NCBI RefSeq assembly: GCF_001641285.1
Contig: NZ_CP014841.1
Span: forward strand, 1,612,001 to 1,676,000
DNA length: 64,000 nt
From: Dyella thiooxydans
GTDB taxonomy: Bacteria > Pseudomonadota > Gammaproteobacteria > Xanthomonadales > Rhodanobacteraceae
Direction of reading: 5' to 3'
Each line of letters starts with the position of its first letter. The first letter of the stretch is position 1. The notes below the pieces were generated by a model. The model searched no databases. It had not been told where the DNA came from and worked only from the letters and a program-made list of their open reading frames with translations. The translations under genes and the position numbers were made by a program. This document shows, piece after piece, positions 3,736-9,037 of this stretch.

Positions 3736-6700
3736 TCACATATTCCGCCGATATTCGCCACCCACCTCATACAACGCGTGACTAATCTGCCCCAACGAGT
3801 TGTACTTCACCGCCTCAACCAACTGCTCAAACACATTCTTCCGCTCCCGAGCCGTCTGCTGCAACCGCTTCAGGCTCTGAGGCTCCAGCCCATTCCGCGC
3901 CTCCCCGAACCCCCGCACGTTCGCAATCTGCTGCCCCTTCTCCTCTTCCGTGGAGCGGATCAGCTCGATCTCGGTGGCGATCTCGCCGCCGTGGTCCTTG
4001 GGCAGGAAAGTGTTGACGCCGATCAGCGGCAGGCTGCCGTCGTGCTTCTTGTGCTCGTAGTACAGGCTCTCTTCCTGGATCTTGCCGCGCTGGTACATGG
4101 TGTCCATCGCGCCGAGCACGCCGCCGCGCTCGCTGATCGCCTCGAACTCCTTGTACACGGCCTCTTCGACCAGGTCGGTGAGCTCGTCGACGATGAAGCT
4201 GCCCTGCCAGGGGTTCTCGTTGAAGTTGAGCCCCAGCTCCTTGTTGAGGATCATCTGGATCGCCACGGCGCGGCGCACGCTCTCTTCGGTCGGCGTGGTG
4301 ATCGCCTCGTCGTAGGCGTTGGTGTGCAGGCTGTTGCAGTTGTCGAACAGCGCGTACAGCGCCTGCAGCGTGGTGCGGATGTCGTTGAACTGGATCTCCT
4401 GCGCGTGCAGCGAACGGCCGGAGGTCTGGATGTGGTACTTCATCATCTGGCTGCGCGGGCTGGCGCCGTAGCGCTCGCGCATGGCGCGGGCCCAGATGCG
4501 GCGGGCGACGCGGCCGATGACGGTGTACTCCGGGTCCATACCGTTGGAGAAGAAGAACGACAGGTTGGGCGCGAAGTCGTCGATGTTCATCCCGCGCGCG
4601 AGGTAGTACTCGACGATGGTGAAGCCGTTCGACAGCGTGAAGGCGAGCTGGCTGATCGGGTTCGCGCCGGCTTCGGCGATGTGATAGCCGGAGATCGACA
4701 CCGAGTAGAAGTTGCGCACCTTGTGGTCGACGAAGTACTGCTGGATGTCGCCCATCATGCGCAGCGCGAACTCGGTGGAGAAGATGCAGGTGTTCTGCGC
4801 CTGGTCTTCTTTCAGGATGTCCGCCTGCACGGTGCCGCGCACGGTGGCTAGCGTCTCGGCCTTGATCCTGGCGTAGGTCTCGGCATCCACCAGCTGGTTG
4901 CCGGTGACGCCGAGCAGGGCTAGGCCGAGGCCGTCGTTGCCGGCCGGCAGCTCACCCGAGTAACGCGGGCGCTCGAGGCCTTCGAACAGCTTGGCGATTT
5001 TCTTTTCCGCCTCGGCCCAGCGGGCGGGGTCGGCCTTGAGGTACTTCTCCACGTTCTGGTCGACGGCGGTGTTCATGAACATCGCCAGGATGATCGGCGC
5101 CGGGCCGTTGATGGTCATGGAGACCGAGCTGGTGGGCGCGGACAGGTCGAAGCCGGAGTACAGCTTCTTCATGTCGTCGAGCGTGGCGATGTTGACGCCG
5201 GAGTTGCCGATCTTGCCGTAGATGTCCGGACGCGGCGCCGGGTCTTCGCCGTACAGGGTGACCGAGTCGAACGCGGTGGACAGACGCGTGGCCGCGCCGC
5301 CCTGGCTGAGGTAGTGGAAGCGGCGGTTGGTGCGCTCGGGCGTGCCTTCGCCGGCGAACATGCGGGTGGGATCTTCGCCGCTGCGGCGGTACGGGTACAC
5401 GCCGCCGGTGTAGGGGTAGTGGCCCGGCAGGTTCTCCTTGCCGAGGAACAGCAGCTGGTCGCCCCAATCGCGGGTCTTGGGCGGCGCCACCTTGGGGATC
5501 TTCTGGTGGCTGAGCGACTCGCGGTAGTTCTCCACGCGGATGGTCTTGCCGCGCACCTGGTACTCGTTGACCTCGGCGGTGACCGACTCGCGCAGGGCGG
5601 GCCAGTTGCGCAGGAGTTCGAGGGATTCCTTGGTCAGCTCGCCGAGGGCGGCGTTGTAGCGCTGGCGGAGGAGCAGGAGCGAGCGGTCGACCACAGGCTT
5701 TTGTGTAGGAGCGGCTTCAGCCGCGATGCTCTCGCCCACGCCCTCGCCCTGCCCGGTCGCGGCTGAAGCCGCTCCTACGGGGGTGAGGTCGGTGGAGGGA
5801 TAGAGGTCCAGCGGCTTGGGCAGCTTGTCGTCGCCCAGCTCCTTCAGCGCCTCGTAGCAGTGCTGGGCCTTGCTGGCCTGCTCGGCCTGTTTGGCGATGG
5901 AGGCGTTGATGCCGCGGCCCTGCTCGGCGATCTCGGCGAGGTAGCGCACGCGGTTGCCGGGGATCAGCACGGTGGCGCGCGGTTCCTTCAGGCTGGTGTC
6001 CAGGTGCGGCTGCCAATCGCACCCGCCCTTGTAGGAGCCCACCTTGTGGGCGACCTCGGCGGCGTCGCTGCCTGGAGCGCTCTGGTCGCGCACAGGGTGC
6101 GCTCCTACGGCGTGCGTGGAGTCCGCGCCGAGGTGGAGCTTTTCGCGCATCAGGCGGCACAGGTTGGTGAACATCCAGGTGACGCCCGGATCGTTGAACT
6201 GGCTGGCGATGGTCGGGTAGACCGGCACGTCTTCGTCCTTCATGGCGAAGGCGGTGCGGTTGCGCTTCCACTGCTTGCGCACGTCGCGCAGGGCGTCTTC
6301 GGCGCCGCGCTTGTCGTACTTGTTGAGCACGATCAGCTCGGCGAAGTCGATCATGTCGATCTTCTCCAGCTGGCTGGCCGCGCCGTATTCGCTGGTCATC
6401 ACGTAGACCGGGAAGTCGACGAGATCGACGATCTCCGAATCGCTCTGGCCGATGCCGGCGGTCTCCACGATCACCAGGTCGTACGGCTGGCTCTTGAGGA
6501 AGTCGATGCAGTCGTGCAGCACGGTGTTGGTGGCGGCGTGCTGGCGACGGGTGGCCATCGAGCGCATGTAGACGCGATGGGACCTCAACGAGTTCATGCG
6601 GATGCGGTCGCCGAGCAGCGCGCCGCCGGAGCGGCGACGGGTCGGGTCCACCGCCAGCACGGCGATGCGCATCTCGGGGAAGGCCTGCAGGAAGCGCAGC

Positions 6701-7398
6701 AGCAGTTCGTCCACCACGCTGGACTTGCCGGCGCCACCGGTGCCGGTGAGGCCGAGCACCGGGGTGTGCTTGCCGGCGAGCTTCCACTGCTTGCGCTGAT
6801 GCTCCAGCTCGGCGTCGCTGAGCGCGCCCTCTTCGATCGCCGAGAGCATGCGGCCGATCGAGATCTCGTCGTCCACTCGCACGGCGGGCACGCCCTGGGT
6901 TTCCTCGGCACGCTTGGCCGCGGCCGCGCCGGCGCGGGCCATCACGTCCTCGATCATCTCGGTGAGGCCGAGCTTCATGCCGTCGTTCGGGTGGTAGATG
7001 CGCTCCACGCCGTAGGCCTGCAGCTCCTTGATCTCTTCCGGCGTGATGGTGCCGCCGCCGCCGCCGAACACGCGGATGTGGCCCGCGCCGCGCTCCTTGA
7101 GCATGTCCACCATGTACTTGAAGTACTCGACGTGGCCGCCCTGGTAGGACGACAGCGCGATGGCGTCGGCGTCTTCCTGCAGCGCGGCGCGCACCACGTC
7201 CTCCACCGAGCGGTTGTGGCCCAGGTGGATCACCTCGGCGCCCTGCGCCTGGATGATCCGGCGCATGATGTTGATCGCCGCGTCGTGGCCGTCGAACAGG
7301 CTGGCGGCGGTGACGAAGCGCAGCGGCGAGGCCTCGCCCGGGGTGCGCGCCTGCTGGGTGTCGCCGGCGGTGGGGACGTGCTTGGGCTGGGAACTCAT
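3736..7398 (-). CDS. icmF: Fused isobutyryl-CoA mutase IcmF
   Basis: A 1220-residue fusion of three parts: a B12-binding domain at the N-terminus ([12 protein letters not shown] near 36-47, FGGGGG near 111-116), a MeaI/MeaB-type GTPase chaperone (P-loop GTGGAGKS at 219-226) and the TIM-barrel mutase in the C-terminal half. The family interconverts isobutyryl-CoA and n-butyryl-CoA with adenosylcobalamin, feeding valine-derived or short-chain acyl-CoA into beta-oxidation; some members also take isovaleryl-CoA. The ATG is preceded by GGAGTTGCC. Two REP-like palindromes lie in frame within linkers, at residues about 431-456 and 540-565, adding residues that IcmF does not normally have. About the last 60 codons show more A/T wobble than the rest. 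Confidence 0.95.
5705..5778. repeat. REP-like inverted repeat inside icmF
   Basis: GTAGGAGCGGCTTCAGCCGC at 5705-5724 is matched by its inverse complement ending in GCTCCTAC at 5778. This is the same outer hexamer-plus-hairpin architecture as the repeats around the RAYT gene. It is read in frame as a Gly/Ala/Glu-rich linker between the GTPase and mutase parts of IcmF. Confidence 0.85.
6031..6108. repeat. REP-like inverted repeat inside icmF, array type
   Basis: It begins GTAGGAGCCCACCTTGTGGG and ends with GGTCGCGCACAGGGTGCGCTCCTAC in two parts, the same sequence as the units of the 87-bp array at 8381-9017. It is translated in frame within IcmF, giving about 26 extra residues before the segment that normally follows the GTPase domain. 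Confidence 0.88.
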
Positions 7399-7503
7399 GG
7401 CAACTCCGACCTCAGTGTGCTTAGCCCCGCAATTCTAGAGGATCGGGGTTGAAGGCGCGGAGAAGTCGGTGTTGCACCTGCAGCAAAATCGCCTGCCTCA
7501 ACT

Positions 7504-7790
7504 GTAGGAGCGCACCCTGTGCGTGATTCGCCGGGGGTGGGGTTCGGGGTTGGTCGCCCACAGGGTGGGCTCCTACAGGGTGCGTTTGTCGGGATGTCTG
7601 GGGGGGCACACAAACGCCCTGCGTCCTACCTGTAGGAGCGCACCCTGTGCGCGACACGCCGGGGGGTGGGGTTACGGTTGGTCGCCCACAGGGTGGGCTC
7701 CTACAAGGGTGGTTTTGTCGGGATGTCTGGGAGGCACACAAACGCCCCGCGTCCTACCTGTAGGAGCGCACCCTGTGCGCGAACCGCCGT
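7504..7790. repeat. REP-like repeat, three copies at 128-bp period, upstream of RAYT
   Basis: The motif GTAGGAGCGCACCCTGTGCG starts at 7504, 7632 and 7760. After each of the first two copies comes the inverse half ending GGGTGGGCTCCTAC, then a spacer carrying GTCGGGATGTCTGGG and CACACAAACGCCC. Pairs of inverted GTAGGAGC palindromes of this kind form BIME-like units. The stretch 7399-7869 between icmF and the RAYT start holds these repeats and no gene I can support. Confidence 0.85.
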
Positions 7791-7869
7791 GGCCCAGCCC
7801 TCCCCTACCTACAAACCGTGCAGCGCATGTCCGACATTTTTTTCCTGCCCGGATCGGCATGGTGGGTCG

Positions 7870-8334
7870 ATGGCACCCATCGCATCTCCCGGCCATCGCG
7901 CGTTACGCAAGGGCCGGGTTTCCGTCCCCGGACAGATCTACCTACTCACCACCGTCACCGCCCATCGGATGCCATGGTTTCTCGATCCTGATGTGGCCCG
8001 GCTGGCCTGTCGCCAGATGATCGAGCCAATGACATGGGGTGACGCCAGGCCGCTGGGCTGGGTGTTCATGCCGGATCACTGGCACGGGCTGGTCGAACTC
8101 GGCCCGCGCGACGATCTCTCGTGTGTGATGAACCGGTTCAAGGCGCGCATCAGCAAGCAGCTTTGCCGACATCTGCAGGGCGACCGCCTCTGGTGCCGCG
8201 GATTTCATGACCGGGCGATACGGCGGGAGGAGGACGTTCGGGCGGTGGCGCGCTATGTCGTCGGCAATCCGCTGCGGGCGGGGCTGGTGGCGCAGTTGGG
8301 GGATTATCCGTACTGGGACTGTGTCTGGCTGTAG
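7870..8334 (+). CDS. REP-associated tyrosine transposase (RAYT, Y1_Tnp/IS200-like)
   Basis: A 154-residue protein with the HUH nuclease motif HWH at 70-72 inside VFMPDHWHGLVEL, an RFKARISKQL helix, and the catalytic tyrosine Y129 in ARYVVGNPLRAGLV, as in single-copy RAYT transposases. These enzymes nick single-stranded REP palindromes and are thought to have spread REP elements through genomes. The ATG at 7870 places the conserved domain at the N-terminus. Longer in-frame starts (for example 7666) run through the upstream repeat and give repeat-encoded sequence, so I reject them. Repeats flank the gene on both sides (7504-7790 and 8381-9017), the usual arrangement for an active or recently active RAYT. 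Confidence 0.93.
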   Translation: MAPIASPGHRALRKGRVSVPGQIYLLTTVTAHRMPWFLDPDVARLACRQMIEPMTWGDARPLGWVFMPDHWHGLVELGPRDDLSCVMNRFKARISKQLCRHLQGDRLWCRGFHDRAIRREEDVRAVARYVVGNPLRAGLVAQLGDYPYWDCVWL

Positions 8335-8380
8335 GTGGTGCTGGTCCGCGTTGGGCATGGCTTGCGCGGCGGGCTTGAGA

Positions 8381-9017
8381 GGTCGCGCACAGGGTGCGCT
8401 CCTACCGCCCTCCTGGAGGAGCCCACCTTGTGGGCGACCACGGCAGGCTTGGTGGTAGGTACGCGCTGGTCGCGCACAGGGTGGGCTCCTACCGCCCTCC
8501 TGTAGGAGCCCACCTTGTGGGCGACCTCGGCAGGCTTGGTGGTGGGTGCGCGCTGGTCGCGCACAGGGTGCGCTCCTACCGCCCTCCTGTAGGAGCCCAC
8601 CTTGTGGGCGACCTCGGCAGGCTTGGTGGTGGGTGCGCGCTGGTCGCGCACAGGGTGCGCTCCTACCGCCCTTCTGTAGGAGCCCACCTTGTGGGCGACC
8701 ACGGCAGCCTTGGTGGTGGGTACGCGCTGGTCGCGCACAGGGTGCGCTCCTACCGCCCTTCTGTAGGAGCCCACCTTGTGGGCGACCTCGGCAGCCTTGG
8801 CGGTGGGTGCCCGCTGGTCGCGCACAGGGTGCGCTCCTACCGCCCTCCTGTAGGAGCCCACCTTGTGGGCGACCTCGGCAGCCTTGGTAGTGGGTACGCG
8901 CTGGTCGCGCACAGGGGGCGCTCCTACCGCCCTCCTGGAGGAGCCCACCTTGTGGGCGACCTCGGCAGGCTTGGTGGTGGGTGCGCGCTGGTCGCGCATA
9001 GGGTGCGCTCCTACCGC
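8381..9017. repeat. Tandem array of seven 87-bp REP-pair units
   Basis: Unit starts (GTAGGAGCCCACC or the GGAGGAGCCCACC variant) lie at 8415, 8502, 8589, 8676, 8763, 8850 and 8937, exactly 87 bp apart. A partial unit leads in from 8381. Each unit holds two inverted palindromes: one reads GTAGGAGCCCACCTTGTGGG, the other ends CACAGGGTGCGCTCCTAC, with a GGCAGGCTTGGTGGTGGG spacer between. Copies differ by a few substitutions. Because 87 is a multiple of three, long artificial reading frames stay open on both strands. No other gene is seen in 8335-9037. Confidence 0.95.
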
Positions 9018-9037
9018 CGCACGCTGATCCGCTTCGC

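What the first reader, a model, noticed from the sequence alone, without database searches (positions are those of the whole stretch)
7504..9017. RAYT gene flanked by two differently organised repeat arrays
Upstream there are three copies at a 128-bp period with the GCGCACC palindrome; downstream there are seven at 87 bp with the GCCCACC palindrome. Both kinds share the outer GTAGGAGC. A RAYT beside its own amplified REP pairs suggests recent activity or local amplification.
Basis: partly seen in the sequence, partly recalled or inferred. Interest (0 to 1): 0.6.

Follow-up and report, generated by a model that had tools for sequence, protein, structure and literature searches.

The report
Transposase flanked by its repeat arrays
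A small domesticated transposase gene sits between two tandem arrays of the short palindromes it probably cuts; this layout is already known from other bacteria, but the surrounding data suggest that such arrays mostly build up when the two palindromes of each repeat unit differ slightly.

Summary
An intact 154-aa RAYT (7870-8334, +) lies between two tandem arrays. Each array contains BOTH palindromes, alternating in inverted orientation: A (GTAGGAGCGCACCCTGTGCGCGA) and B (GTAGGAGCCCACCYTGTGGGCGA). Upstream: 3 A+ and 2 B-, period 128. Downstream: 8 A- and 7 B+, period 87. They share the unit type (tails inward, 27 or 32 nt apart) and differ in the head-to-head linker (55 or 9 nt). This is a REPtron with BIME-2-like flanks, a known kind (E. 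coli yafM, P. fluorescens, one third of RAYTs in Nunvar 2010).

The genome (a Dyella relative) holds 111 exact A and 28 exact B copies. Three congeners lack this RAYT and any A/B pair. The A palindrome is conserved beside most of the closest RAYTs (up to 70% identity) in Rhodanobacter and Dyella. Unit loops are alike within arrays (88%) but not between arrays (58%, shuffled 55%), so the arrays grew in place.

The less expected result: arrays are built from unlike pairs, lone pairs from like ones, both within this genome (7:2 against 6:42, p=2e-4) and at RAYT flanks (19:3 against 6:40, p=6e-9). Unlike arms weaken the joint hairpin by about 10 kcal/mol. The mechanism is inferred. Strain comparison was not possible.

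The parts
7504..7526 (+). REP A (1 mismatch), upstream array
7554..7576 (-). REP B, upstream array
7632..7654 (+). REP A, upstream array
7682..7704 (-). REP B, upstream array
7760..7782 (+). REP A, RAYT-proximal upstream copy
7502..7789 (.). upstream tandem array, period 128 (tail-tail gap 27, head-head linker 55)
7870..8334 (+). RAYT (TnpA-REP like), 154 aa; HWH motif H70/H72, candidate catalytic Y129
8383..8405 (-). REP A, RAYT-proximal downstream copy
8381..9018 (.). downstream tandem array, period 87: 8 REP A on - (8383, 8470, 8557, 8644, 8731, 8818, 8905, 8992) alternating with 7 REP B on + (8415, 8502, 8589, 8676, 8763, 8850, 8937); tail-tail gap 32, head-head linker 9
6031..6108 (-). 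single dispersed A/B pair inside the icmF-like gene (in frame); its loop resembles the downstream array units (73%, above 99% of shuffled pairs)

Best explanation
The locus is a REPtron: a RAYT (domesticated IS200/IS605-like HUH single-strand transposase) with its substrate REPs. Shown by sequence: the RAYT is intact; the A palindrome is the one conserved beside its closest relatives; A and its stem-compensated variant B are dispersed in this genome; each flank is a tandem array of one A/B unit with its own linker, that is, a BIME-2-like array grown in place. Inferred: the RAYT nicks single-stranded DNA next to the GTAG heads (CT precedes 30% of heads against 5% background), which moves paired REPs (REPINs) as MITE-like units and leaves ends from which units next to the gene are re-copied or recombined into tandem. 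Inferred: arrays persist mainly when the two REPs of a unit differ, because unlike arms form a much weaker joint hairpin, while each REP keeps its own fold and GTAG head for RAYT recognition.
For: NF047646 133 bits, Y1_Tnp 5.5e-7, TnpA-REP structure 4er8 at 5.8e-7. Conserved MPDHWHGL motif and Y129 in five aligned RAYTs. A flanks L058-L070, the closest relatives. 111 A and 28 B exact copies. The RAYT and all A/B pairs occur only in this genome of four in the genus; the sister genome has an empty syntenic site. Loops 88% alike within arrays, 58% between, shuffled 55%. Like or unlike arms against lone or tandem: 7 het and 2 homo arrays, 6 het and 42 homo lone pairs in this genome, p=1.9e-4; 19:3 against 6:40 at RAYT flanks, p=5.6e-9; per locus 14:3 against 3:30, p=3.8e-7; independent pairs on the tree 7 to 0, p=0.016. 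Folding energy -37 (like) against -27 kcal/mol (unlike). CT before 53 of 175 heads; a Stenotrophomonas TnpA-REP cleaves at CT (PMC8266576).
Against: No activity data. CT precedes only a minority of heads. Three homotypic arrays exist in the sample (L075, L093, L127) and two in this genome, although L075 and L093 have small consistent differences in the palindrome centre. P. fluorescens SBW25 is reported to have ordered clusters of nearly identical REPINs as well (PMC3116915). On branches with strong support alone only 2 independent pairs remain, too few for a test. Array growth by ordinary unequal recombination, with no role for the RAYT, fits equally well.
Confidence: 0.6

Rival explanations
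1. Arrays arise by RecA-dependent or slippage-driven unequal duplication of any REPIN; the RAYT only supplied the seed unit. Unlike arms are a founder accident, copied along with the unit.
For: Units within an array share loop and linker, and variants are mosaic among units, as unequal exchange and conversion would give.
Against: A pure founder accident predicts the same share of unlike pairs in arrays and in lone pairs; observed 19 of 22 against 6 of 46 and 7 of 9 against 6 of 48 in one genome.
Confidence: 0.3
2. Unlike pairs are the RAYT's true left and right ends (as E. coli Y and Z2), and only such end pairs are amplified into tandem by the enzyme; lone A/A pairs are products of an older or different reaction.
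For: Unlike pairs recur with different palindromes in several RAYT lineages, often on both sides of the gene (L071, L084, L107, L114). A/A pairs look partly shared among species while A/B pairs are found only where this RAYT is.
Against: The closest RAYT relatives carry A/A pairs only, so A/A also appears to be a substrate; both gene-proximal REPs here are A (A+ RAYT A-).
Confidence: 0.25
3. The arrays are selected for a host function (transcription attenuation, mRNA stability, gyrase or IHF binding), and the RAYT is a bystander.
For: Known for E. coli BIMEs (cited in PMC2817692).
Against: Array, unit number and linker differ at every site, and the whole locus is absent from congeners, so no conserved function at this site is seen.
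Confidence: 0.1

Closest known systems
E. coli TnpA-REP (yafM/rayt) REPtron with BIME-2 on both sides (Y and Z2 REPs)
   Same: RAYT flanked on both sides by tandem arrays in which two different REPs alternate in inverted orientation (PMC2817692); sequence similarity of the RAYT to 4er8
   Different: REPs here are short perfect palindromes (23 nt) that differ by one compensated stem pair; in Enterobacteriaceae dimer partners differ in loop length (PMC3733652)
Stenotrophomonas maltophilia REPtron Sm (TnpA-REP group 3) and its 23-nt GTAG REPs
   Same: GTAG head, 23-nt REP with perfect palindrome and 3-nt loop, order Lysobacterales; CT cleavage site (PMC8266576) matches the enriched CT before heads
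   Different: Different palindrome; cleavage not tested here; RAYTs of Stenotrophomonas loci are 45-50% identical
P. fluorescens SBW25 REPINs, RAYT-adjacent clusters and GI-GIII tandem arrays (PMC3116915)
   Same: Dispersed inverted REP pairs, ordered clusters beside RAYT genes, and tandem arrays of two REP types
   Different: Ordered clusters of nearly identical REPINs are common there; here arrays are mostly of unlike pairs
GTAG-family homo- and heterodimers (Di Nocera 2013, PMC3733652)
   Same: Same classes; that paper proposes that heterodimers escape hairpin-directed clearance such as SbcCD
   Different: In the sections read here it does not link heterodimers to tandem arrays; that link is what measure

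Membership tests
RAYT / TnpA-REP | IS200/IS605-like Y1 transposase domain with HUH motif and catalytic tyrosine | tested here: met
   NF047646 133 bits (cut-off 80), PF01797 over cut-off, HWH at 70-72, invariant Y129
RAYT / TnpA-REP | gene flanked by inverted REPs present in many copies in the genome | tested here: met
   A+ 7760 and A- 8383 flank the gene; 111 exact A
RAYT / TnpA-REP | REP type follows RAYT phylogeny | tested here: met
   GCGCAC stem beside nearly all loci of the clade L058-L070
RAYT / TnpA-REP | cuts its single-stranded REP | not testable with these tools
   needs purified protein
REPIN | dispersed pairs of inverted REPs forming a joint hairpin | tested here: met
   42 lone A/A pairs in fetched stretches; predicted hairpins
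BIME-2 (E. coli sense) | tandem array of two alternating, oppositely oriented REP types | tested here: met
   both window arrays and five others in this genome
BIME-2 (E. coli sense) | DNA gyrase binding | not testable with these tools
   needs binding assay
TnpA-REP group 3 | placement in group 3 by phylogeny | not tested
   inferred only from perfect palindromes and the order; no reference groups were put in the tree
autonomous IS200/IS605 element | multiple near-identical transposase copies in the genome | tested here: not met
   one copy; the only other relative found is about 50% identical with other REPs

The most novel reading that the evidence does not exclude
Unlikeness of the two REPs in a pair (a compensated stem change) is a general condition for tandem REP arrays to form or survive: like pairs stay single or are lost, unlike pairs build arrays, repeatedly and with different palindromes beside unrelated RAYT lineages, because the joint hairpin is weakened while RAYT recognition is kept.
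Probability: 0.4. Interest if true: 0.5.

Novelty: new member of a known kind. Interest (0 to 1): 0.33.

Why it matters
The locus itself is ordinary. The association between unlike arms and tandem arrays bears on a point that the 2013 survey left open (the preference for heterodimers 'has no obvious explanation', PMC3733652), and this genome, with lone A/A pairs and A/B arrays under one RAYT, makes that directly testable.

Tried and rejected
(1) First idea that A/A pairs belong to another RAYT, because A/A pairs occur in congeners without this RAYT: rejected, since A flanks nearly all of the closest RAYT relatives. (2) One genome-contig scan with the single protein found no relative; the alignment scan did. 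(3) An out-of-sample set from the whole class by NF047646 mostly lacks GTAG REPs next to the gene; only L190 carries an alternating array, of unlike stems, so it is not a usable validation. (4) Plasmids and viral contigs gave no match, no sign of a mobile carrier. (5) PADLOC gave nothing. (7) Coordinate slips that put stops in the translation were corrected.

Full report
Observation. The ORF at 7870-8334 (+) encodes 154 aa. It matches NCBIfam NF047646, REP-associated tyrosine transposase (133 bits, cut-off 80), Pfam Y1_Tnp and the solved TnpA-REP 4er8 (5.8e-7). The start at 7870 fits the aligned relatives, and HWH (70-72) and Y129 are invariant in five RAYTs. TRF finds a 128-bp period at 7502-7789 and an 87-bp period at 8381-9018. 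Both arrays alternate the A and B palindromes in opposite orientation. A and B differ by one compensated pair of the stem.

Genome. The window is 1612001-1676000 of a 4.23-Mb single contig. The genome has 111 exact A and 28 exact B. A/A pairs (exact heads) number 35 here and 0, 12 and 2 in G001, G002 and G003. Several have loops identical or nearly identical to congener copies, so part of the A/A population looks older than the species, although the flanks were not compared. A paired with a different stem type occurs 23 times here (one of these is a decayed A rather than a compensated variant) and never in the congeners. The RAYT is also only here; the best hits in congeners are 49-53% identical and have other REPs. 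At the syntenic site the closest congener (95-97% DNA identity in the neighbouring icmF-like gene) has about 100 bp between the two genes, where this genome has about 1.65 kb.

Relatives. An alignment search gave 80 RAYT loci, mostly Lysobacterales. The closest (56-70%) are nearly all flanked by the GCGCAC stem, that is, A, usually as like pairs. L071 (59%) shows the same A/B mixture. Other lineages show arrays of other unlike stems: GCGGCT/GCGACT, GGGGCT/GCGACT, GCCGCT/GCCGGC, GCGGAC/GCGCAC and more.

Arrays and unlike pairs. The idea arose from this genome and was then counted on the 80 loci plus the window; the exact definitions were set after viewing. At RAYT flanks, alternating arrays are 19 unlike and 3 like; lone inverted pairs are 6 unlike and 40 like (p=5.6e-9). 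Per RAYT locus (50 loci with a scorable cluster): 14:3 against 3:30 (p=3.8e-7). By distinct palindrome sets: 10:3 against 2:11 (p=0.005). On the best tree 11 independent pairs give 7 in the expected direction and 0 against (p=0.016), but only 2 pairs stand on strongly supported branches. Within this genome: arrays 7:2, lone pairs 6:42 (p=1.9e-4). Both like arrays here have wide head-to-head linkers (60 and 155 nt).

Growth in place. Loops are 88% alike within arrays and 58% between arrays, against 55% for shuffled loops; upstream against downstream of the RAYT is 40%. One dispersed pair is related to the downstream array: that in the icmF-like gene, 73% (shuffled 99th percentile 69%). Units of the downstream array are 97% identical on average, with mosaic variants.

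Mechanism. TnpA-REP enzymes cut single-stranded REPs at CT, and GTAG takes part in choosing the site (PMC8266576). CT precedes 53 of 175 heads, 30% against 5% background. Predicted folding of the pair is -37 kcal/mol for like and -27 for unlike arms, while the single hairpins keep about the same energy. I therefore propose that the RAYT supplies and nicks the units, that tandem growth follows by re-copying or recombination, and that unlike arms let the array survive. The last two steps are inferred; heterodimer protection from hairpin clearance was proposed by Di Nocera (PMC3733652).

Known kind. Nunvar 2010 reports that RAYTs are always flanked by inverted REPs, one third by BIMEs, and that E. 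coli rayt has BIME-2 on both sides (PMC2817692). Bertels 2011 describes tandem REPIN clusters beside RAYTs and GI-GIII arrays (PMC3116915). The locus is a new member of this kind.

Limits. No strain comparison, no activity data, one genome per species; clusters were found by GTAGGA-like heads and could miss divergent partners.

Noticed in passing
window 6011-6135 (ORF 3736-7398, -): An A/B REP pair (6031-6108) lies in frame inside a fused B12-binding/MeaB/methylmalonyl-CoA mutase gene and adds about 34 residues to a linker; all three congeners lack it.
   Followed up: partly
window 5705-5778: A second REP pair of another type (GTAGGAGCGGCTTCAGCCGCGA, only 4 copies in the genome) lies in frame in the same gene; G001 has it at the same place, G002 has a different insert there, G003 none. 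This linker seems to tolerate palindromic inserts repeatedly.
   Followed up: partly
L032 1350-2860 (G000:C1:2478223): A second RAYT, about 50% identical, flanked by like pairs of another REP (GTAGGAGCCCGCTCGCGGGCGA).
   Followed up: partly
L054 788-2390 and L055 1080-2470: Another RAYT lineage in two congeners has long arrays of two unlike REPs (GCGACT and GGGGCT stems, period about 91) on both sides of the gene.
   Followed up: partly
G003 (two A/A pairs): The closest congener has no RAYT match at all but keeps two A/A pairs whose loops match pairs here exactly or nearly so: a possible relict population.
   Followed up: no
loci L185-L214: Family NF047646 is broad: most high-scoring members across the class have no GTAG palindromes beside them, and some genomes carry ten or more matches.
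   Followed up: partly
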